DNA of 64,000 bases from Pseudacidovorax sp. GTDB lineage: Bacteria; Pseudomonadota; Gammaproteobacteria; Burkholderiales; Burkholderiaceae_C. Position numbers and translations under genes: made by a program. The stretch is from assembly GCF_017991995.1 (NCBI RefSeq), contig NZ_JAGOPN010000001.1, positions 1 to 64,000 of the forward strand. The letters run 5' to 3'. The notes under the pieces were generated by a model. It made no database searches. It was not told where the DNA came from and saw only the letters and a list, made by a program, of their open reading frames with translations. Of this stretch, positions 43,660-56,525 are shown piece after piece. Positions within the stretch are counted from its first letter, which is position 1; the number at the start of each line of letters is the position of its first letter.

Positions 43660-43794
43660 GGACGAGTTCCTACAGCAAAGAGGTGGCGGGAAGCCCCACA
43701 TTCTGGGGCACGTCGCATGACGCGGCCGTCATCTGGATTCCTTACACTTCGCGCCTTCTTTGCGCACCCCCCAAAAGCCGGAGCCCGACAGCCC

Positions 43795-46089
43795 ATGAAA
43801 TTCCGCTTTCCCATCGTCATCATCGACGAGGACTTCCGCTCCGAGAACACCTCCGGACTGGGCATCCGCGCCCTGGCCCAGGCCATCGAAAGCGAGGGCT
43901 TCGAGGTGCTGGGCGTGACCAGCTACGGAGACCTGTCGCAGTTCGCGCAGCAGCAGAGCCGGGCGAGCGCCTTCATCCTGTCGATCGACGACGAGGAATT
44001 CACCATCGGCCCAGACCTCGACCCGGCCGTGCTGAACCTTCGCACCTTCATCGGCGAGGTGCGACGCAAGAACACCGACGTGCCGATCTACATCTACGGC
44101 GAGACCAAGACCAGCCGGCACCTGCCCAACGACATCCTGCGCGAACTGCATGGCTTCATCCACATGTTCGAGGACACGCCGGAGTTCGTGGCCAAGCACA
44201 TCATCCGCGAGGCCAAGAGCTACCTCGAGACGGTGCAGCCGCCGTTCTTCAAGGCACTGATCGACTACGCGGAAGATGGCTCCTATTCGTGGCACTGCCC
44301 GGGCCACTCTGGTGGCGTGGCCTTCCTCAAGAGCCCCGTCGGCCAGATGTTCCATCAGTTCTTCGGCGAGAACATGCTGCGTGCGGACGTCTGCAATGCG
44401 GTGGAGGAACTGGGCCAGCTGCTGGACCACACCGGTCCGGTGGCCGCCAGCGAGCGCAATGCGGCACGCATCTTCAACGCCGACCATTGCTTCTTCGTCA
44501 CCAACGGCACGTCCACGTCCAACAAGATGGTGTGGCACCACACGGTGGCGCCCGGCGATGTGGTGGTGGTGGACCGCAACTGCCACAAGTCGATCCTGCA
44601 CGCGATCATCATGACCGGCGCCATCCCGGTGTTCATGAAGCCCACGCGCAACCACTACGGCATCATCGGCCCGATCCCCAAGAGCGAGTTCGAGCCCGAG
44701 GCCATCAAGGCCAAGATCCGCGCCAACCCGCTGCTCAAGGACGTCGACGCCGACACCGTCAAGCCGCGCGTGCTGACGCTCACGCAGTCCACCTACGACG
44801 GCGTGATCTACAACACCGAGACCATCAAGACGATGCTCGACGGCTACGTCGACACGCTGCACTTCGACGAGGCCTGGCTGCCGCATGCGGCCTTCCATCC
44901 CTTCTACGGGCCGTACCACGCCATGGGCAAGCGCCGTGCGCGGCCCAAGGAATCGCTGGTGTTCGCCACCCAGTCCACGCACAAGCTGCTGGCCGGCATC
45001 AGCCAGGCCAGCCATGTGCTGGTGCAGGACTCGCAGAACCGCCAGCTGGACCGGGACCTCTTCAACGAGGCCTACCTGATGCATTCGTCCACCAGCCCGC
45101 AGTACGCCATCATCGCCAGTTGCGACGTGGCGGCCGCCATGATGGAGCCGCCCGGCGGCACCGCGCTGGTGGAAGAGAGCATCCTCGAGGCCCTGGACTT
45201 CCGTCGCGCCATGCGCAAGGTGGAGGAGGAGTTCGGCAAGGACGAATGGTGGTTCAAGGTCTGGGGCCCGGAGCACCTGGTCGAGGAAGGCATCGGTCGC
45301 GCCGACGACTGGATCATCAAGGGCGAGACCCGCGCCGGCAACGGCGGCAAGAAGAACGGCGCGCGCAACTGGCACGGCTTCGGCAAGTTGGCCGACGGCT
45401 TCAACATGCTCGACCCGATCAAGTCGACCATCGTGACGCCCGGCCTGGACCTCGACGGCAAGTTCGCGCCCACCGGCATCCCGGCGAGCATCGTCACCAA
45501 GTTCCTGGCCGAGCATGGTGTGATCGTGGAGAAGACGGGCCTGTACAGCTTCTTCATCATGTTCACCATCGGCATCACCAAGGGCCGCTGGAACACGCTG
45601 CTGACGGCGCTGCAGCAGTTCAAGGACGACTATGCCCGCAACCAGCCCATGTGGCGCATCCTGCCGGAGTTCTGCCAGCAGCATCCCATCTACGAGCGCA
45701 TGGGCCTGCGCGACCTGTGCCAGCGCGTGCACGAGCTGTATGCCAAGTACGGCATCGCCCGGCTGACCACCGAGATGTACCTGTCGGACCTGGAGCCGGC
45801 TATGAAGCCCAGCGAGGCCTTCGCCCACATCGCGCACCGCAAGACCGAGCGCGTGGAGATCGACCACCTCGAAGGCCGCATCACCACCAGCCTGATCACG
45901 CCGTATCCGCCCGGCATTCCGCTGCTGATCCCGGGCGAGGTCTTCAACAAGAAGATCGTGGACTACCTGAAGTTCGCGCGCCAGTTCAACCTGGAGTGCC
46001 CGGGGTTCGAGACCGACATCCACGGCCTGGTGGCCCGCGTGGACGAGAAGGGCAAGAAGCGCTACTACGCGGATTGCGTCAAGCGCTGA
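43795..46089 (+). CDS. Arginine/lysine/ornithine decarboxylase (PLP, fold type I with receiver-like wing)
   Basis: 764 residues. The N-terminal wing domain is response-regulator-like (IVIIDEDFRSENTSGLGIRALAQAIE...). The PLP domain has HCPGHSGG, FVTNGTSTSN, HFDEAWLPHAAFHPFYG and the Schiff-base Lys397 in ATQSTHKLLAG. The C-terminal domain is of the large inducible/biosynthetic group II decarboxylases (AdiA, CadA/LdcC, SpeC family). The amino acid cannot be fixed by eye. It makes a diamine (agmatine, cadaverine or putrescine) and consumes a proton. Start ATG 43795; divergent from nfeD. Confidence 0.93.
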   Translation: MKFRFPIVIIDEDFRSENTSGLGIRALAQAIESEGFEVLGVTSYGDLSQFAQQQSRASAFILSIDDEEFTIGPDLDPAVLNLRTFIGEVRRKNTDVPIYIYGETKTSRHLPNDILRELHGFIHMFEDTPEFVAKHIIREAKSYLETVQPPFFKALIDYAEDGSYSWHCPGHSGGVAFLKSPVGQMFHQFFGENMLRADVCNAVEELGQLLDHTGPVAASERNAARIFNADHCFFVTNGTSTSNKMVWHHTVAPGDVVVVDRNCHKSILHAIIMTGAIPVFMKPTRNHYGIIGPIPKSEFEPEAIKAKIRANPLLKDVDADTVKPRVLTLTQSTYDGVIYNTETIKTMLDGYVDTLHFDEAWLPHAAFHPFYGPYHAMGKRRARPKESLVFATQSTHKLLAGISQASHVLVQDSQNRQLDRDLFNEAYLMHSSTSPQYAIIASCDVAAAMMEPPGGTALVEESILEALDFRRAMRKVEEEFGKDEWWFKVWGPEHLVEEGIGRADDWIIKGETRAGNGGKKNGARNWHGFGKLADGFNMLDPIKSTIVTPGLDLDGKFAPTGIPASIVTKFLAEHGVIVEKTGLYSFFIMFTIGITKGRWNTLLTALQQFKDDYARNQPMWRILPEFCQQHPIYERMGLRDLCQRVHELYAKYGIARLTTEMYLSDLEPAMKPSEAFAHIAHRKTERVEIDHLEGRITTSLITPYPPGIPLLIPGEVFNKKIVDYLKFARQFNLECPGFETDIHGLVARVDEKGKKRYYADCVKR

Positions 46090-46135: not shown

Positions 46136-47002
46136 TCATCCGAACCGCAGTGCCATCACGCCGCCGACCACCACGGCGGTACCGAGGGCGCGCTGCAGCC
46201 CGAAGCGCTCCCGCAGGCACAGCGTGCCGATGAGCGCGGCGAAAAGCACCGAGGTCTCGCGCAGTGCCGCCACCACCGCCACGGGCGCCCGCGTCATGGC
46301 CCAGAGCGCGATGCCATAGCTGGCCAGCGAGGCCGCCGTGCCCAGCCACGCCACACCCAGGCGGCCACGCATGTAGGCGAGAGCATCACGCCGCCCCTGC
46401 GGACCGCGCCGCCACAGCACCAGCAGCATGAATGGCAGGCCGTCGAAGACGAAGAGCAGGGCGACGTATGCGGCGGCGTTGCCGCTGGCCCGCACGCCGA
46501 GGCCGTCCACGACCGTATAGAGCGCGATGATGCAGGCGTTGGCCAGCGCGAAGCCCAGGGCCTTGCCGCGGTGCCCTGACGTGTGCAGATGACCGGGTGA
46601 AAGACCGAGCGTGAGTACGCCAGCACAGATGCCGGCCACACCGAACCATGCGAGCCCCGAGAGGCGCTCGCCCATCACCGTGAGGCTGCTAAGGGCCACC
46701 AGCAGTGGCGCGCTGCCGCGCATCACCGGGTAGGCCAGCCCCAGGTCACCGTGCTTGTACGCGCCGGCCAGGGCCACGTAGTAGCCCACATGGATCACGA
46801 CCGAGGCGGCCAGATAAGGCCACGAAGCGGTGGCCGGCAGGCCGGTGAAGGCCAGGATGGGTAGCGCGATGAACAGTCCGAGGCTGTGGATCAGTGCCGT
46901 GTCCAGCGACTTGTCCGACGCCGACTTGATGAGTGCATTCCAGCTGGCATGGAGCACCGCGCCGAACAGCACGGCCAGCGCGACAGGGCCCGTCAGCGTC
47001 AT
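46136..47002 (-). CDS. EamA/DMT family transporter
   Basis: 288 residues with ten hydrophobic segments in two EamA halves (SLTVMGERLSG in the first, VAALRETSVLFAALIGTLCLRERFG in the second). Its start overlaps the stop of the HD-domain gene by four bases (ATGA), so it is coupled to the phosphonate genes and may move a substrate or product of that pathway (inference). Otherwise a general metabolite or amino-acid exporter. It converges with the decarboxylase gene, with 46 bases between. Confidence 0.88.
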   Translation of the reverse strand: MTLTGPVALAVLFGAVLHASWNALIKSASDKSLDTALIHSLGLFIALPILAFTGLPATASWPYLAASVVIHVGYYVALAGAYKHGDLGLAYPVMRGSAPLLVALSSLTVMGERLSGLAWFGVAGICAGVLTLGLSPGHLHTSGHRGKALGFALANACIIALYTVVDGLGVRASGNAAAYVALLFVFDGLPFMLLVLWRRGPQGRRDALAYMRGRLGVAWLGTAASLASYGIALWAMTRAPVAVVAALRETSVLFAALIGTLCLRERFGLQRALGTAVVVGGVMALRFG

Positions 47003-47553
47003 GCGCCTGGGGCCAGCATGCAGCGACGCGCGCGCGCCAGGTAGTGCGGCAGGTCGGGGGTGGCGAGGTCGGCCTGCTTGGCCGTGTCGTCCCACAGCCG
47101 CAGGCGGACCGCCTCCTGCGCATGCGGGCGCTGCATGAAGCGCATGGCTTCTTCGTCGCTGAATACGCCGCCCTGTAGAACCAGGCTGCGCTTGGAGTCG
47201 TCCGAGAGGGCGGCCCAGTAGTCCGGACGGGTCGCGCACAGGTAGCGCTTGGCGTCGACGTGCCAGGCAATGGCGTCGAGGACCCGATCCGGAAAGAGCC
47301 CGCGGAGGAAGGGCAGGGCATGGAACTGGTGCCGGTCGTCGATGCCGCGCAGCGTGGGCGTCTCGCCCTGGTCGTTGAGCAGGTGGCCGATGTCGTGAAG
47401 CAGGGCGGCCGTGACGAGCGCGTCGTCGGCATCTTCCTGCTCGGCCAGGTAGGCACTCTGCAGCGCATGTTCCAACTGGGTCACGGGTTCGCCGCTGTAC
47501 TGCTCGGCGCCGCGGCGCGCGAAGAGGTTCTCGATGTCGTGAAGGGTCAACAT
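46999..47553 (-). CDS. PhnZ-like HD-domain phosphonate oxygenase
   Basis: 184 residues of the HDIG family associated with phosphonate degradation. It keeps residues that match the PhnZ mixed-valent di-iron centre as I recall it: His29, His53-Asp54 (LLHDIGH), His75, His98 and an Asp near 155, plus the Tyr-x-Gly-Glu-x-Val-Thr-Gln segment at 19-26. PhnZ splits 2-amino-1-hydroxyethylphosphonate to glycine and phosphate; its hydroxylase partner PhnY is not in the window. Coupled to the EamA gene, nine bases after phnR. Substrate inferred. Confidence 0.82.
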   Translation of the reverse strand: MLTLHDIENLFARRGAEQYSGEPVTQLEHALQSAYLAEQEDADDALVTAALLHDIGHLLNDQGETPTLRGIDDRHQFHALPFLRGLFPDRVLDAIAWHVDAKRYLCATRPDYWAALSDDSKRSLVLQGGVFSDEEAMRFMQRPHAQEAVRLRLWDDTAKQADLATPDLPHYLARARRCMLAPGA

Positions 47554-47561
47554 GGCGGGCC

Positions 47562-48299
47562 TCAGGACGCGGCGAGCGAGGCACCGCCGCTGCCCGTGGT
47601 CGAGCCGCGCTGTTTCTCCCAGTTGAGGCGCGTGCGCTCGCGGCTGTTCATCACATGTTGGTACATGGCCTGGCCCGCGGCATCCGGGTCACCGGAGGCG
47701 ATGGCCTTGAGGATGGCGCGATGCTCGCGCGAGTAGACGGCCATCGATTCGTCGGTGAGGTTTTGCCGGCGGAACAGCGACAGCTCGTTCACCAGCTTGC
47801 GATAGGTGGCGACCAGCTTGGCGTTGCCGGCCAGCTCCAGCAGGCGGTCATGGAAGGCGAGGTTGAAGCGGTGGTAGTCCTTGGCGTCGCCCGCTTTCAC
47901 CGCCTGGTCCATGGCCTCGACCAGCTGCCGCAGTTCGCGCACCTGGGCCGGGGCGGCTGTCTCGGCCAGCTTGCGGCCCACATACAGGTCCATCACGGCA
48001 CGCACCTCGAAGATCTCCAGCGCTTCCTCGATGGGCACATCGCGCACGAAGACGCCGCGGTTCTTTTCGGTGCGTACCAGGCCGCCTTCCTCCAGCATGC
48101 GGAAGGCCTCGCGCACCGGCCCGCGCGAGACGCCCAACTGGTCGGCCAGCGTGGCCTCGGTGAGCTTGGCGCCGGGGCCGAGCTCGCCGTCCAGGATCAT
48201 GCGTTCGATTTCTGCCTGCACCACATTCGCCAGCGAATGGCACTGAAGCTGTGCGATGACGGGATGGGAAGAGACCTTCTTGGCAGGGGCGGCAGGCAT
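47562..48299 (-). CDS. phnR: GntR family (FCD domain) regulator of phosphonate utilisation
   Basis: 245 residues. The N-terminal GntR winged helix-turn-helix has LTEATLADQLGVSRGPVREAFRMLEEGGLVRTEKNRGVFVRDV. The C-terminal all-helical FCD effector domain has metal-site residues (HRFNLAFHDRLLEL ... SREHRAILKAI). It resembles the GntR subfamily found with 2-aminoethylphosphonate transport genes in Burkholderiales. It likely represses the divergent transport operon until AEP or a derivative binds. The shared gap holds palindromic TTGTCTA elements. Confidence 0.9.
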   Translation of the reverse strand: MPAAPAKKVSSHPVIAQLQCHSLANVVQAEIERMILDGELGPGAKLTEATLADQLGVSRGPVREAFRMLEEGGLVRTEKNRGVFVRDVPIEEALEIFEVRAVMDLYVGRKLAETAAPAQVRELRQLVEAMDQAVKAGDAKDYHRFNLAFHDRLLELAGNAKLVATYRKLVNELSLFRRQNLTDESMAVYSREHRAILKAIASGDPDAAGQAMYQHVMNSRERTRLNWEKQRGSTTGSGGASLAAS

Positions 48300-48322
48300 G
48301 GCGCGATGGTAGGTTCGAGAGC

Positions 48323-48358
48323 GTAGATTGTCTACGATCTACAAAGAACAATAGACAA
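48323..48358. promoter_or_regulatory. Candidate GntR (PhnR) operator region
   Basis: GTAGATTGTCTAC (48323-48335) is a 5-bp-arm palindrome. TTGTCTA (48328-48334) and TAGACAA (48352-48358) form a second, wider inverted repeat. It lies just upstream of phnR, in the 158-base gap to phnS. Which element is bound is not known. Confidence 0.5.
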
Positions 48359-48457
48359 AGAGGTGGAGCAGGCCCCGATTTTGCTTGGCGACCGTGTCAC
48401 GAAGATGTCGTTTCGCGGCGGCACATTCGCCCGGTCATTTCATCGAGGAGCCTGCCC

Positions 48458-49495
48458 ATGCACTTTTCCGTCAAGACCATCGCGACCGCCCTCATCGGCC
48501 TGGCCGCTACCGGCGCGGCCTTCGCGCAGAAGACCCAGCTGACGGTCTACACCGCGCTGGAGACCGACCAGCTCAAGGCCTACCAGAGTGCCTTCAACAA
48601 GGTCGAGCCCGACATCGAGATCAAGTGGGTGCGCGACTCCACCGGTGTGATCACTGCCAAGCTGCTGGCCGAGAAGGCCAATCCGCAGGCCGATGTGGTG
48701 TGGGGTGTGGCCGCCTCCAGCATGGCGCTGTTCGACAAGCAGGGCATGCTCGAGCCCTATGCGCCACTGAACCTGGACGCGGTGATGCCGCAGTACCGCG
48801 ACAAGAAGAACCCGCCCGCCTGGGTCGGCATGGACGTGTTCGGTGCCGTCGTGTGCTTCAACACGGTCGAAGCCAAGAAGAAGAACATCCCCGTCCCCAC
48901 CACCTGGAAGGACCTCACCAAACCCGAGTACAAGGGCCAGGTGGTGATGCCCAACCCCGCCTCGTCGGGCACCGGCTACTTCGACGTCGCGGCCTGGCTG
49001 CAACTGTGGGGCGACGACGCCGGCAAGGGCGGCGGCTGGAAGTACATGGATGCGCTGCACGAGAACATCGCGCAGTACACGCACTCCGGCTCCAAGCCCT
49101 GCAACATGGCGGCCTCCGGCGAATACGTGGCGGGCATCTCCTTCGAGTACCGCGGCTACACCAACAAGGCCAAGGGCGCGCCCATCGAGCTGGTGTTCCC
49201 CAAGGAGGGCCTGGGCTGGGACCTGGAGGCCGTCGGCATCTACAAAGGCACCAAGAAGCTGGACGCCGCGAAGAAGCTGGCGAACTGGGCGACGTCGAAG
49301 GACGCCATGCTGCTCTACGGCAAGAACTTCGCCGTGACTGCCCAGCCGGGCGTGGCCCCCAAGCTGGCGGGCATCCCCGGCGACTACGAGGCCCGCCTGA
49401 TCAAGATGGACTTCGAGAAGTCCGCCACCAACCGCGAGCGCACCCTGGCCGAGTGGACGCGCCGCTACGACGCCAAGAGCGAGGCGAAGAAGTGA
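48458..49495 (+). CDS. phnS: 2-aminoethylphosphonate ABC transporter, substrate-binding protein
   Basis: 345 residues with a signal peptide ([23 protein letters not shown], cut before QKTQL). The periplasmic binding fold of the iron(III)/AEP type 1 family follows ([21 protein letters not shown] ... [37 protein letters not shown] ... TPLTWKD-like [38 protein letters not shown]). It delivers AEP to the membrane complex encoded next. First gene of the plus-strand operon; its stop overlaps phnT (TGATG). Confidence 0.9.
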
Positions 49496-50661
49496 TGAAC
49501 GCGCCGGCGCATGTCCATGCGGCCGACCGCAGCATGGGTGCTGCGCCGGCGCCGCTGTCCCTGGTTGAAAGCGTGCCCCAGGCCGACTACCTGCGGCTGC
49601 AGGGCGTGCACAAGCGCTTCGGCGCCTTCACGGCGCTGGAGTCCATCGACTTGACCATTCCGCAGGGCGAGCTGGTGTGTTTCCTCGGCCCCTCGGGCTG
49701 TGGCAAGACCACCTTGCTGCGCATCATCGCGGGGCTGGAAGTGCAGACGGGCGGCCAGCTCTGGCAGGGCGGTACCGACATCTCGCGCCTGCCGCCTGCA
49801 CAGCGCGACTACGGCATCGTCTTCCAGTCCTATGCGCTCTTTCCCAACCTGAGCATTGCGGACAACGTGGCGTATGGGCTGGTCAACCAGCGGCGCCCGC
49901 GCAAGGACATCGCCGCGCGTGTCGACGAACTGCTGCAGCTCGTGGGCCTGCCCGGCAGCGGCGGCAAGTACCCGGCGCAGATGTCCGGCGGCCAGCAGCA
50001 GCGGGTAGCGCTGGCGCGCGCACTGGCCGCCTCGCCAGGCCTGCTGCTGCTGGACGAGCCCCTTTCGGCGCTCGACGCCATCGTGCGGGTGCACCTGCGC
50101 AACGAGATCCGTGCGCTGCAGCGCCGGCTGGGCGTCACCACCATCATGGTGACGCACGACCAGGAAGAGGCCCTGTCCATCGCCGACCGCATCGTGGTGA
50201 TGAACCATGGCGTGATCGAGCAGGTGGGCACGCCGTTGCAGGTCTATCGCGAGCCCGCGACGCCCTTCGTGGCCGAGTTCGTCGGCAAGGTCAACCGGCT
50301 GCCCGCCGTGGCCGAGGGCGGGCGCTGGTTCCGGTGCGGCGACCGGCGCTGGCAGGTCGAGGCTGGCCACGGCGCCGACTACCGACCGGGCCGGGAAGTG
50401 ATGCTCTACCTGCGTCCGGAAGACCGGGCGATGACCGGCTTCGACGCGGACCATCCGGGCCTGTGCATCGGCACGGTGGCGCACATCGAGTTCCTCGGCG
50501 GCAATTGCCTGGCCGAGCTGGTGGTGGAGGGGCTGCCGGGGCCGCTGCAGCTGCAGTTCTCGCTCAACCAGATGGACGAGTTCGGCGTGCAGCAGGGCCG
50601 TCGGTTGCGCTTCGCGCTGCGGCTGGACCGGCTGCGGGCCTTCCCCGCGGCGGAGGCCTGA
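49495..50661 (+). CDS. phnT: 2-aminoethylphosphonate ABC transporter, ATPase
   Basis: 388 residues. The ABC domain has Walker [10 protein letters not shown], signature [15 protein letters not shown], Walker [14 protein letters not shown] and H-loop [11 protein letters not shown]-terminal TOBE-like regulatory domain follows (about 270-385). It powers import through the adjacent permease. The N-terminal extension of about 30 residues before [12 protein letters not shown] is not conserved. Starts ATG 49495 within the phnS stop. Confidence 0.92.
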
Positions 50662-50663
50662 GC

Positions 50664-52364
<1,701 letters not shown>

Positions 52365-52383
52365 GCCAAAGGGATTCCCACGA

Positions 52384-53517
52384 ATGAGCAACACCCATTT
52401 CGACCTGATCGTGGTCGGTGCCGGCATCGTCGGCCTGGCCCATGCGTACACCGCCGCGCGGCGCGGCCTCAATGTCTGCGTGATCGAGAAGGACGCCGCC
52501 TGCGTCGGTGCGTCCATCCGCAACTTCGGCTTCGTGACCGTGACCGGACAGGGCGCCGGCGACACCTGGCGCCGCGCCCGACGCGCACGCGAGGTGTGGG
52601 GCGAGGTGGCGCCGCAGGCTGGCGTCGAGGTGGTCCACCAGGGCCTGTACCTCACGGCCTTCCGCGACAAGGCGCTGGCGGTGCTGGAGCAGTTCATGGA
52701 CACCGAGATGGCCGAAGGCTGCGAACTGCTGGACGTGGCCGAGGCCGCGCAGCGCGCACCGACGTTGCGGTTGGACGGGCCCGAAGGCCCGGCCCGTGCG
52801 GTCCTCTACAGCCCGCACGAGGCGCGTGTGGAGTCGCGCACCGCCATCGGCCTGCTGGCGGCCTGGCTGGCCGAGGCGCATGGCGTGGTCTTCCGCTTCA
52901 GCGAACAGGTGCTGGAGGTGGCGACGCCGCGCGTGCGCACCGCCCGCGCCACGCTGCATGCGGAGCGCGTGGTCGTCTGCACCAACATCGAACTGAACGG
53001 CCTGTTTGCCGAGCGGCTGGCGCCGCATCGCCTGCAGCTGTGTCAGTTGCACATGCTGCGTGTTCAGCCACCCAAGGGGTTCAAGCTGCCCGGCTCGGTC
53101 ATGGCCGACCTGAGCCTGGTGCGCTACCACGGCTACAGCAAGCTGCCGGCGGCGCAGGCGCTGCGGGCCCAGCTGGAGGCGGAGGAGGGCGGGTCGCTGG
53201 CTCATGGCATCCACCTGATCGTGGTGCAGAGCGCCGACGGCTCGCTGGTGGTGGGGGACTCCCACCACTACGGCCCGGTGCTTGAACCCTTCGCCGACAC
53301 GCAGGTAGACGCGTTGATGCTGCGTCACATGCAGGAGGCGCTGCACCTGCCCGACTACACCGTCACCCAACGCTGGGTGGGCACCTATCCCTCGTCGCCC
53401 GACACTGACTGCCTGATCGACGCGCCGGACGACGCCACCCGGCTGGTGATCGTCACCAGCGGCACCGGCGCCAGCACGGCCTTCGGCATCGCCGAAGAAG
53501 TCTTCGCCGCTTGGTAG
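52384..53517 (+). CDS. FAD-dependent oxidoreductase of phosphonate clusters (DAO family)
   Basis: 377 residues of the D-amino-acid oxidase/glycine oxidase superfamily. The N-terminal FAD site is LIVVGAGIVGLAHAYTAARRGLNVCVIEKD (about 8-37), with R-x-F-G-F near 50 and a C-terminal TSGTGASTAFGIAEEVF. This clade recurs beside phosphonatase and AEP transport genes. Biochemical work I recall shows related enzymes oxidise AEP or N-methyl-AEP to phosphonoacetaldehyde. With no PhnW transaminase here, it is the likely source of the PhnX substrate. It starts 19 bases after the permease and ends 20 before phnX. Confidence 0.85.
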   Translation: MSNTHFDLIVVGAGIVGLAHAYTAARRGLNVCVIEKDAACVGASIRNFGFVTVTGQGAGDTWRRARRAREVWGEVAPQAGVEVVHQGLYLTAFRDKALAVLEQFMDTEMAEGCELLDVAEAAQRAPTLRLDGPEGPARAVLYSPHEARVESRTAIGLLAAWLAEAHGVVFRFSEQVLEVATPRVRTARATLHAERVVVCTNIELNGLFAERLAPHRLQLCQLHMLRVQPPKGFKLPGSVMADLSLVRYHGYSKLPAAQALRAQLEAEEGGSLAHGIHLIVVQSADGSLVVGDSHHYGPVLEPFADTQVDALMLRHMQEALHLPDYTVTQRWVGTYPSSPDTDCLIDAPDDATRLVIVTSGTGASTAFGIAEEVFAAW

Positions 53518-53537
53518 GCCGGACCTCCGCATATCCC

Positions 53538-54356
53538 ATGACTGACCAGCAAAAACTCCAGGCCGTCGTCTTCGACTGGGCCGGCACCATCATCGACTTC
53601 GGCTCCTGCGCGCCCATGGGCGCCTTCGTGCGCTTGTTCGAGCGCTACGGCATCGACCTCAGCATCGCCGAGGCGCGCGGCCCCATGGGCGTGGCCAAGT
53701 GGGACCACATTCATGCGCTCAGCCAACTGCCAAGCGTGGCGGCCCAGTGGGAGGCGCGCTTCGGCCGCGGCTTCACGCGGGCCGACATCGACGAGCTCTA
53801 CGAGGTGTTCACGCCCATGAACGCGGCCGTGGTGCCCGACTTCTGCGACTTCATCCCGGGCGCGCTCGACACCGTGGCCGCCGTGCGTGCGCGTGGCCTG
53901 CGCATCGGCTCCACCACCGGCTACAACCGGCCGATCATGGAGGTGGTGACGCCCATCGCCGCGAAAGCCGGCTATGTGCCGGACAACCTCGTGTGCGCGG
54001 GCGACCTGGCGGCCGGCCGGCCTTCGCCCTTGATGATGTACCGCTGCTTCGCCGACCTCGGCGTGTGGCCGGCCCATACGGTGGTGAAGGTCGACGACAC
54101 CGGCGTGGGCGTGCAGGAGGGCCTGAATGCCGGCGCCTGGGCAGTGGGGCTGGCGATCAGCGGCAATGCGGCGGGCCTGACGCTGGCCGAGTGGCAGGCG
54201 CTCGATGCCGCAGGCCAGACAGCAGTGCGCACCCGTGCGACGGCGGAGCTGAAGAGCGCCGGGGCGCACTACGTGATCGACAGCGTGGCGGAACTGATGC
54301 CGCTGCTGGACGACATCGACGCGCGGATGGCGCGCGGCGAACGGCCGTCGGCCTGA
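53538..54356 (+). CDS. phnX: Phosphonoacetaldehyde hydrolase (phosphonatase)
   Basis: 272 residues, HAD superfamily. The nucleophile region is VVFDWAGTIIDFG with Asp13. The cap-domain Lys that forms the Schiff base is Lys54 in GPMGVAKWDHIHAL, and the acidic loop is VKVDDTGVGVQEGLNAG. It hydrolyses the C-P bond of phosphonoacetaldehyde to acetaldehyde and phosphate. ATG 53538 (MTDQQKLQAVVFDWAG) is chosen; a longer reading from 53511 overlaps the FAD gene end. Last gene of the plus operon. Confidence 0.96.
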   Translation: MTDQQKLQAVVFDWAGTIIDFGSCAPMGAFVRLFERYGIDLSIAEARGPMGVAKWDHIHALSQLPSVAAQWEARFGRGFTRADIDELYEVFTPMNAAVVPDFCDFIPGALDTVAAVRARGLRIGSTTGYNRPIMEVVTPIAAKAGYVPDNLVCAGDLAAGRPSPLMMYRCFADLGVWPAHTVVKVDDTGVGVQEGLNAGAWAVGLAISGNAAGLTLAEWQALDAAGQTAVRTRATAELKSAGAHYVIDSVAELMPLLDDIDARMARGERPSA

Positions 54357-54868: not shown

Positions 54869-55705
54869 TCAGCGGTCCGTGCGCACGCGCATGAATCGCG
54901 CGAAGCGTGGAACGCCCTGTGCCGTGAGCCCGTTGTAGCGGTAGGTCACCGTGCTGCCCACCGGCGGCGGATCGTCGCGCTGTGCATCGGTGAAGCCACC
55001 GCCCAGCTTGAAGACCAGGCCTTCGGGCGTTCGCACCTGCAGCGCGCCCATCCGGCCCGCATGCCGGCCCTGGCCCGGCAGGTGCGCGAGCACCACCGCC
55101 TCGGCATCATCGTAGGGCTTGACCTTGAGCAGGTCCGCGCTGCGGCCTGCGCCATAGAGCGAACTGCCCCGATGCAGCATCAGTCCTTCGCCGCCAGCCC
55201 GCACCGTGGCGTCGAGCTGCCGCCGGAGTGCCTCGGCCGTGGTGGCGCGTTCCTGCCGAACGGGCTCGAGCCAGGGGGTGGCCTTGACCGGCAGCAGCCG
55301 CTGCAGCACCTGCAGCCGATGGTCGAAGTCACCGGATTCGGCGGGCAGGTCGAAGACCATGAAGCGCATGGCGCGCCACGCTGCATCGTCAGGTGCCTGG
55401 CTGCGTACCGTGCCGGAGGCATGCTCGAAGCGCCCGCGGCCGGCCCAGAGCTCGCCATCCATGGGCTGCTGCGGCCAGCCGGCCGTGAACCACGCCGGCG
55501 CGGCGATACGCTCGCCGCCGCGCGTCCACAAGGCCTGCCCGTCCCAGAAGCCGCGAACGCCGTCGTACTTCTCGCTGACCCAGTAGCCGTCGAGCGGCAT
55601 GCCCGGGCGCCAGACCTCTGCCAGCATGAGGGCAGGCGGCGCGGCCCATGCCGGCGCGCACAGGGCGGCCGACAACGTCGCCAGCAGAAAACCGCGACGC
55701 CACAT
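54869..55705 (-). CDS. ligE: Secreted minimal ATP-dependent DNA ligase (LigE type)
   Basis: 278 residues with a signal peptide MWRRGFLLATLSAALCAPAWA. A two-domain ligase core follows: motif I SEKYDGVRGFWDG (AMP-accepting Lys46), ELWAGRGRFE, GEGLMLHRG and KVKPYDDAEAVV, then the OB domain to the end. It lacks any DNA-binding extension, as is typical of Lig E, which joins DNA outside the cytoplasm. ATG 55705 gives the intact signal peptide; the longer reading adds 26 unconserved residues. Confidence 0.9.
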   Translation of the reverse strand: MWRRGFLLATLSAALCAPAWAAPPALMLAEVWRPGMPLDGYWVSEKYDGVRGFWDGQALWTRGGERIAAPAWFTAGWPQQPMDGELWAGRGRFEHASGTVRSQAPDDAAWRAMRFMVFDLPAESGDFDHRLQVLQRLLPVKATPWLEPVRQERATTAEALRRQLDATVRAGGEGLMLHRGSSLYGAGRSADLLKVKPYDDAEAVVLAHLPGQGRHAGRMGALQVRTPEGLVFKLGGGFTDAQRDDPPPVGSTVTYRYNGLTAQGVPRFARFMRVRTDR

Positions 55706-55730
55706 GACCGTCACGCGAGGAGATGGATGA

Positions 55731-56525
55731 TCAGCCTTCGGACGGCTCGTCGATGCCGCCGACCACGTTGCTGAAGCCGCCATCCACGTAGGTGATCTCG
55801 GCGGTCACGCCACCGGCCAGGTCGGACAGCAGGAAGGCCGCCACATTGCCCACGTCGTCGATGGTCACGTTGCGGCGGATGGGCGAGACGGCCGCCACTG
55901 CGGGCAGCAGCTTGCCGAATCCCTTGATGCCGCTGGCAGCCAGCGTCTTGATGGGGCCGGCGCTGATGCCGTTGACGCGCACGCCCTTGGGGCCCAGCGA
56001 GCCGGCCAGGTAGCGCACCGAGGCTTCCAGGCTGGCCTTGGCCAGGCCCATCGTGTTGTAGTTGGGCACCACGCGCACGGCGCCCAGGTAGGTCAGCGTG
56101 AGCAACGCGGCCTGGTCGTTGAGGTAGGGAAGGGCGGCCTTGGCCATGGCCGGGAAGCTGTAGGCGCTGATGTCGTGCGCGATCTTGAAAGCCTCGCGCG
56201 ACAGGCCTTCGAGGAAGTCGCCGGCGATGGCCTCGCGCGGCGCAAAGCCGATGCTGTGGACGAAGCCGTCGAACTTGGGCCAGGTCTGCGAGAGGTCCTC
56301 GAACAGCTTGGCGATCTGGGCATCGTCGCCCACGTCGCAGTCGAAGACCAGCTTGGAATCGAAGTCGGCAGCGAACTCGGTGATGCGGTCCTTGAAGCGT
56401 TCGCCCACGTAGCTGAAGGCGAGTTCTGCGCCTTGCGCATGGCAGGCCTTGGCGATGCCGTAGGCGATGGAACGGTTGGAGAGGACGCCGGTGATCAGAA
56501 GTTTCTTGCCGCTGAGAAAGCCCAT
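55731..56525 (-). CDS. fabI: Enoyl-[acyl-carrier-protein] reductase (NADH) FabI
   Basis: 264 residues, SDR fold. It carries [18 protein letters not shown] and SIGFAP with Gly93 (the triclosan-sensitive position). The Tyr156-x6-Lys163 catalytic pair is in [11 protein letters not shown], numbered exactly as in E. coli FabI. It reduces the enoyl-ACP double bond in fatty acid elongation. ATG 56525 is the standard MGFLSGKK start. Divergent from yejA with only 37 bases between start codons. Confidence 0.97.

What the first reader, a model, noticed from the sequence alone, without database searches (positions are those of the whole stretch)
46136..54356. Phosphonate locus with PhnX but no PhnW: FAD oxidoreductase as the amine-removing step
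The locus has a complete AEP transporter (phnS, phnT, double-length phnU), GntR regulator and PhnX, which needs phosphonoacetaldehyde. The enzyme that normally makes it from AEP, the PhnW transaminase, is absent from the window. The gene between transporter and phnX is an FAD-dependent DAO-family oxidoreductase with an intact FAD site. This implies an oxidative (peroxide-producing) rather than transaminating route, possibly acting on AEP or N-methylated AEP.
Basis: partly seen in the sequence, partly recalled or inferred. Interest (0 to 1): 0.7.

Follow-up and report, generated by a model that had tools for sequence, protein, structure and literature searches.

The report
PhnW-free aminophosphonate locus with PbfD oxidase
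A bacterium, most likely a Pseudacidovorax, carries a gene cluster that probably strips the amine from natural phosphorus compounds with a flavin enzyme instead of the usual transaminase; the route was already described in 2023, so this is a new example rather than a new kind.

Summary
The locus (46136-54356) carries phnR, phnS2, phnT2, double-length phnU2, an FAD oxidoreductase and a true PhnX. The genome (6.24 Mb, estimated 100% complete) has no PhnW over curated cut-offs. It is most likely a Pseudacidovorax. The FAD gene is NCBIfam TIGR03364, the PbfD family. A similar gene set is described in Achromobacter. What I add: among 64 PhnX-bearing genomes, PhnW is missing in 25 of 27 with pbfD beside phnX and in 7 of 37 others, but few contrasts are independent and they are not significant. 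The same backbone in relatives carries W, W-X, W-pbfD-X or pbfD-X tails and a conserved putative operator. The function of this protein is inferred, not tested.

The parts
46136..47002 (-). EamA-type membrane protein, TIGR03340-like (phosphonate-associated DUF6)
   Evidence: 235.6 bits, below the 288.15 cut-off; PF00892; start codon; beside the HD gene in several related loci
46999..47553 (-). Phn-HD: oxygenase of the PhnZ/TmpB kind
   Evidence: TIGR03276 241.7 (cut-off 214.6); TmpB 6npa E 7.4e-39, PhnZ 4mlm E 3.9e-31
47562..48299 (-). PhnR, GntR/FCD regulator
   Evidence: TIGR03338 301 bits; FCD and GntR domains
48326..48339 (.). putative PhnR operator GATTGTCTACGATC
   Evidence: 11 or more of 13 positions in 18 of 18 phnR-phnS2 intergenic regions (window and 17 loci); only site in the window with up to 1 mismatch (0.11 expected). 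Pattern chosen after seeing the alignment
48394..48411 (+). possible Pho box (two TGTC repeats 11 bases apart)
   Evidence: 11 of 14 positions, shuffle p 0.06 in the window; 11 of 18 regions at p <= 0.05. Suggestive only; consensus recalled
48458..49495 (+). phnS2, substrate-binding protein of the AEP ABC transporter
   Evidence: TIGR03261 501.5 bits
49495..50661 (+). phnT2, ATP-binding subunit
   Evidence: TIGR03265 493.1 bits
50664..52364 (+). phnU2, double-length permease
   Evidence: TIGR03262 773.5 bits; start codon
52384..53517 (+). pbfD, FAD-dependent aminophosphonate oxidoreductase (TIGR03364, also called HpnW)
   Evidence: 428.9 bits (cut-off 285.1); tree; model pLDDT 89.5; fold of glycine/sarcosine oxidases and L-proline dehydrogenase
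53538..54356 (+). phnX, phosphonoacetaldehyde hydrolase
   Evidence: TIGR01422 339.5; 2iof E 3e-63, with FDWAGT and PMGxxKxDH motifs aligned

Best explanation
The locus is an aerobic, transaminase-free aminophosphonate pathway. PhnS2-T2-U2 import AEP and N-methyl-AEP. PbfD oxidises the C-N bond with FAD; the imine hydrolyses to phosphonoacetaldehyde plus ammonia (from AEP) or methylamine (from N-methyl-AEP), and O2 reoxidises the flavin to give H2O2. PhnX then splits phosphonoacetaldehyde into acetaldehyde and phosphate. PhnR controls the operon from the shared intergenic region. Shown here: gene identities, family membership, operon layout, lack of PhnW over cut-off in the genome. Inferred from published homologues: substrates, products, O2 as acceptor. 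Inferred from comparison: that PbfD stands in for PhnW in vivo.
For: Families; no PhnW over cut-off; no PhnJ; tight operon, 19- and 20-base gaps around pbfD; PhnW missing in 25 of 27 genomes with pbfD beside phnX versus 7 of 37 other PhnX genomes; related loci have phnW after phnU2 where the window has pbfD; the window's PbfD falls in the tree group in which PhnW is found in 6 of 35 searched genomes, against 9 of 13 in the other group; published enzymology of PbfD1 and PbfD2.
Against: This protein has never been assayed. PbfD1 of A. baumannii discriminates 18-fold against AEP and PbfC 400-fold, so AEP use cannot be assumed. I had no sequence of the tested PbfD1 or PbfD2 and could not place the window's enzyme beside either. 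Two related genomes keep PhnW in the same cluster as pbfD and phnX (L092, L095). In the family sample alone the contrast is weaker: PhnW in 2 of 17 PhnX genomes with pbfD adjacent and in 6 of 10 without. On the PhnX tree only 5 independent contrasts lie on starred branches, on average 3.2 with, 0.1 against and 1.7 without a difference, not significant. An unassigned class-V aminotransferase remains in the genome and class-III aminotransferases were not searched.
Confidence: 0.75

Rival explanations
1. PbfD serves N-methyl-AEP only; AEP is not used, or is transaminated by an unrecognised aminotransferase elsewhere in the genome.
For: The three purified enzymes all prefer N-methyl-AEP: PbfC 400-fold, PbfD1 18-fold, PbfD2 4-fold. 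An unassigned class-V aminotransferase exists on C33.
Against: That protein scores 89.5 of 360.8 bits on the AEP aminotransferase model. In the phylum sample 17 of 18 PhnX genomes without pbfD keep a true PhnW, while 0 of 11 with pbfD beside phnX do; in the family sample the first figure is only 4 of 8.
Confidence: 0.2
2. The FAD enzyme acts on a different amine, such as 1-hydroxy-AEP (the old TIGR03364 guess) or glyphosate-like secondary amines (in-silico proposal for Achromobacter HpnW).
For: TIGR03364 description as quoted in PMC10590968; in-silico ligand prediction in PMC11203657.
Against: [quoted passage not shown] PbfB showed N-methyl-AEP activity in extracts. PhnX needs phosphonoacetaldehyde.
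Confidence: 0.05
3. The Phn-HD oxygenase is the main C-P cleaving route for AEP here and PbfD-PhnX is accessory.
For: An HD gene of the PhnZ/TmpB kind sits in the same cluster.
Against: No PhnY partner was found: the single PhyH protein scores 43 of 500 bits on the nearest phosphonate hydroxylase model and lies on another contig.
Confidence: 0.05

Closest known systems
PbfD (PbfD2 of Mariniblastus fucicola, PbfD1 of Acinetobacter baumannii), Zangelmi et al. 2023, PMC10590968
   Same: Same family (PbfD1 is annotated TIGR03364), same PhnX neighbour, same absence of phnW as in the PbfD2 organism; PbfD2 was proposed to surrogate PhnW. The paper also names pbfD-phnX in Rhodoferax koreense.
   Different: The window's enzyme is untested and I could not align it with the tested proteins.
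Achromobacter phosphonatase cluster (hpnW, phnX, phnSTU, phnHD), PMC11203657
   Same: Same enzymes and transporter, including a PhnZ-like HD oxygenase.
   Different: LysR regulator instead of GntR PhnR; the Achromobacter strains keep a phnW elsewhere and have C-P lyase genes, while this genome has no PhnW or PhnJ over cut-off.
Classic PhnWX and PhnWAY pathways
   Same: The backbone EamA-HD-PhnR/S2-T2-U2 recurs around phnW in related genomes; PhnX is shared with PhnWX.
   Different: phnW is missing and pbfD-phnX follows phnU2.

Membership tests
PbfD / TIGR03364 | NCBIfam curated cut-off | tested here: met
   428.9 of 285.1 bits, profile positions 2-365 of 365
PbfD / TIGR03364 | gene lies in a phosphonoacetaldehyde-using cluster | tested here: met
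   phnX follows after a 20-base gap
PbfD / TIGR03364 | amine-oxidoreductase fold with FAD motif | tested here: met
   model pLDDT 89.5; best PDB folds include L-proline dehydrogenase 1y56 and glycine oxidase 4ysh, TM 0.74-0.78
PbfD / TIGR03364 | oxidises N-methyl-AEP to phosphonoacetaldehyde and methylamine | not testable with these tools
   needs an assay
PbfD / TIGR03364 | falls with tested PbfD2 rather than PbfD1 | not tested
   the tested reference sequences were not in hand; by proxy it falls away from a PhnW-rich group
PhnX | TIGR01422 cut-off and catalytic Asp/Lys motifs | tested here: met
   339.5 of 220 bits; motifs aligned to 2iof
PhnZ/TmpB HD oxygenases | TIGR03276 cut-off and alignment to PhnZ/TmpB | tested here: met
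   241.7 of 214.6; alignments to TmpB and PhnZ. Below the TmpB equivalog cut-off (174.9 of 300) and the hydroxymethylphosphonate dioxygenase one (150.6 of 300)
PhnY/PhnZ oxidative pathway | PhnY hydroxylase partner | tested here: not met
   one PhyH protein in the genome, 43 of 500 bits to the nearest phosphonate hydroxylase model
PhnWX pathway | PhnW transaminase | tested here: not met

The most novel reading that the evidence does not exclude
In the window's family the phosphonate locus is a fixed backbone (EamA, HD oxygenase, PhnR, S2-T2-U2, one conserved operator) whose catabolic tail is swapped: W with other genes, W-X, W-pbfD-X or pbfD-X. The window shows the state in which transaminase and PhnY are both absent, and one locus handles AEP, N-methyl-AEP and, through the orphan HD oxygenase, imported (R)-hydroxy-AEP.
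Probability: 0.35. Interest if true: 0.4.

Novelty: new member of a known kind. Interest (0 to 1): 0.22.

Why it matters
It is a clean example of a hydrolytic aminophosphonate pathway in a genome without PhnW or PhnJ over cut-off. The claim that PbfD replaces PhnW rests on work in vitro (limitations section) and would here be testable by a single knockout. Related loci with W-X, W-pbfD-X and pbfD-X tails on one backbone are natural comparators.

Tried and rejected
Considered that phnX might be the TIGR03351 PhnX-like hydrolase: rejected, 88.2 of 218.9 bits. Considered a phnW elsewhere: not found at curated cut-offs, with one unassigned class-V aminotransferase left open. Considered C-P lyase: no PhnJ. 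Considered a PhnY for the HD oxygenase: the only PhyH protein is not one by score. Considered strict exclusion of phnW and pbfD: rejected, both occur together in L092 and L095.

The phylogenetic control of the phnW-pbfD association did not reach significance (5 independent contrasts on starred branches, median p 0.25); the raw Fisher p of 4e-9 counts related genomes as independent and should not be read as such. The Pho box is weak. A list of residues that differ between the two PbfD groups (for example R247 and D242 in the window's group, H and G in the other) was computed but has no functional test and is not used as evidence. A second look with VIA-align was not available.

Rows dropped: of 26 loci, four weak partial matches (L042-L045) were left out of all counts. 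Of 70 PbfD sequences (window plus 69) two duplicates (L094, L099) were left out of the tree, giving 68 rows. One PhnX counted as present in the family sample (G003) is partial and below its cut-off. PhnW-like matches below cut-off (G398, G183, G260 as only matches) were counted as no PhnW.
Full report
What is there. The interval 46136-54356 holds eight genes. Reading left: phnR (47562-48299, minus), a PhnZ/TmpB-like HD oxygenase (46999-47553, minus) and an EamA membrane protein (46136-47002, minus). Reading right: phnS2, phnT2, double-length phnU2, an FAD oxidoreductase and phnX, with gaps of 19 and 20 bases around the FAD gene. Seven of the eight pass NCBIfam's curated cut-off for a phosphonate family; the EamA protein does not.

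Where it is. The FAD protein is 99% identical to one of Pseudacidovorax intermedius DSM 21352, so the organism is most likely a Pseudacidovorax. The genome held is 6.24 Mb in 38 contigs, 100% complete and 0.63% contaminated by the tool's estimate.

PhnW in the genome. Neither PhnW model finds a gene over its cut-off; the best hits are 56.7 of 360.8 bits and 47.3 of 400.8. Four of the five distinct hit regions were rescanned: two IscS, one nearest SufS, and one class-V aminotransferase on C33 with no assignment (89.5 of 360.8 bits). There is no PhnJ.

What the FAD gene is. It is TIGR03364, 428.9 bits against 285.1. PMC10590968 (abstract, the results and discussion sections and the bioinformatics methods read; introduction and supplements not) describes the PbfD group, whose A. 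baumannii member PbfD1 is annotated TIGR03364. Purified PbfD1 and PbfD2 oxidise N-methyl-AEP to phosphonoacetaldehyde and methylamine, use O2 well, and act on AEP (PbfD2 4-fold and PbfD1 18-fold less efficiently than on N-methyl-AEP). pbfD genes outside PbfD1 are most commonly with phnX alone, Rhodoferax koreense is named with pbfD-phnX, and PbfD2 is proposed to surrogate PhnW. PMC11203657 (abstract, results sections 2.5 and 2.7 and passages read) describes hpnW (TIGR03364), phnX, phnSTU and PhnHD together in two Achromobacter strains without phnW in the cluster. PMC11356716 (passages read) cites a thesis for pbfD replacing phnW where phnZ and phnX occur. PMC10574752 (passages read) repeats the replacement idea. 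One search for Pseudacidovorax with phosphonate found 1 paper, on arsenic-related genes by its title (listing only), so this instance seems not to be in print in that library.

Structure. An AlphaFold model from 19 sequences has mean pLDDT 89.5, with a weak stretch at 38-46. The nearest solved folds include L-proline dehydrogenase, D-arginine dehydrogenase, glycine oxidase and sarcosine oxidase, at 15-20% identity in the 50 rows listed. By sequence the nearest solved protein is monomeric sarcosine oxidase, E 8e-6. The fold fits an amine oxidoreductase but does not fix the substrate.

Comparative test. I searched 150 genomes of the family and 388 of the phylum for TIGR03364 (23 and 26 genomes), PhnW (29 and 39 over cut-off) and PhnX (27, one of them below cut-off, and 39). 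Phylum sample: 21 genomes have both pbfD and phnX. In 11 the two genes lie within 2.5 kb, and PhnW over cut-off is in 0 of 11 (one, G398, has a PhnW-like gene below cut-off). In 10 they lie apart, and PhnW is in 7. In 18 genomes with phnX but no pbfD, PhnW is in 17. Family sample, weaker: 19 genomes have both, 17 of them adjacent; PhnW is in 2 of the 17 and 2 of the other 2; in 8 genomes with phnX and no pbfD, PhnW is in 4. Both samples together, each genome once: no PhnW in 25 of 27 with pbfD beside phnX, against 7 of 37 others. Related genomes are not independent: on the PhnX tree only 5 contrasts on starred branches could be made, on average 3.2 in the expected direction, 0.1 against and 1.7 without difference, not significant. 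In the phylum searches at most 5 or 6 candidates per genome were scored. In 22 loci (L020-L041), phnX follows pbfD in 17 and no PhnW was found in the fetched flanks of any (up to 9 kb a side, shorter at contig ends).

Module exchange. The backbone EamA-HD-PhnR / S2-T2-U2 recurs with other tails: phnW after phnU2 without phnX (L129-L133), where the one locus I read (L132) has what look by sequence like phnA, phnY and a Na/Pi transporter gene between PhnR and HD (these three names are mine, not from a model search); W-X (L134); W-pbfD-X (L095); and pbfD-X (window and L020-L024, L027, L082; also L087 without HD and L090 without EamA). Not all relatives keep the backbone: L025, L026 and L088 lack S2-T2-U2 hits, and many more distant loci have only pbfD-phnX with or without a transporter. 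A GATTGTC-N-ACAATC-like palindrome upstream of phnS2 matches at 11 or more of 13 positions in 18 of 18 intergenic regions, in W-type and pbfD-type loci alike; it was picked from the same alignment, so the shuffle p-values are optimistic. A Pho-box-like pair is weaker (p <= 0.05 in 11 of 18, 0.06 in the window).

Tree. PbfD sequences (68 rows, quick tree) split into a group of 13 and a group of 55 that holds the window. PhnW over cut-off is found in 9 of 13 genomes of the first group and in 6 of the 35 genome-searched members of the second. This resembles the published contrast of PbfD1 with other PbfD, but I had no tested sequence to anchor it.

Open points. The HD oxygenase has no PhnY partner found; PMC11203657 notes the same lack in pseudomonads with this kind of protein. 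Direct import of (R)-hydroxy-AEP is one answer (inference). The main substrate of this PbfD, AEP or N-methyl-AEP, and the need for it in vivo are untested.

Verdict. Confirmed observation, supported interpretation, already described kind. Interest is modest: a clean PhnW-free and PhnJ-free example with a useful series of related loci.

Noticed in passing
46999-47553 (-): Phn-HD oxygenase (PhnZ/TmpB kind) with no PhnY partner found in the genome; substrate source unknown.
   Followed up: partly
48326-48339 and 48394-48411: Conserved palindrome and a possible Pho box in the phnR-phnS2 intergenic region, shared by phnW-type and pbfD-type loci.
   Followed up: partly
L087 (G022): Related genome with two phnX genes about 14 kb apart, one beside pbfD (76% identical to the window's) and one distant (46%).
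   Followed up: no
L111, L113, L114, L115 (family f15 genomes): Diverged pbfD (34-36% identical) in a phnT-U-S-pbfD-HD cluster without phnX, while a phnW-phnX pair lies elsewhere in the genome.
   Followed up: partly
L139, L140, L141, L142 (G015, G053, G079, G128): Four related genomes with phnX but neither PhnW nor PbfD over cut-off; their source of phosphonoacetaldehyde is unknown.
   Followed up: no
L025, L026, L088: Close relatives with HD and pbfD-phnX but no hits to the S2-T2-U2 transporter in the fetched flanks.
   Followed up: no
L055 (C24): PhyH-family oxygenase beside an ABC permease and a periplasmic binding protein (names by eye); weakly like methylphosphonate hydroxylase (43 of 500 bits).
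   Followed up: partly
43729-46089 (+): Orn/Lys/Arg decarboxylase next to the locus.
   Followed up: no
54869-55783 (-): Small ATP-dependent DNA ligase.
   Followed up: no
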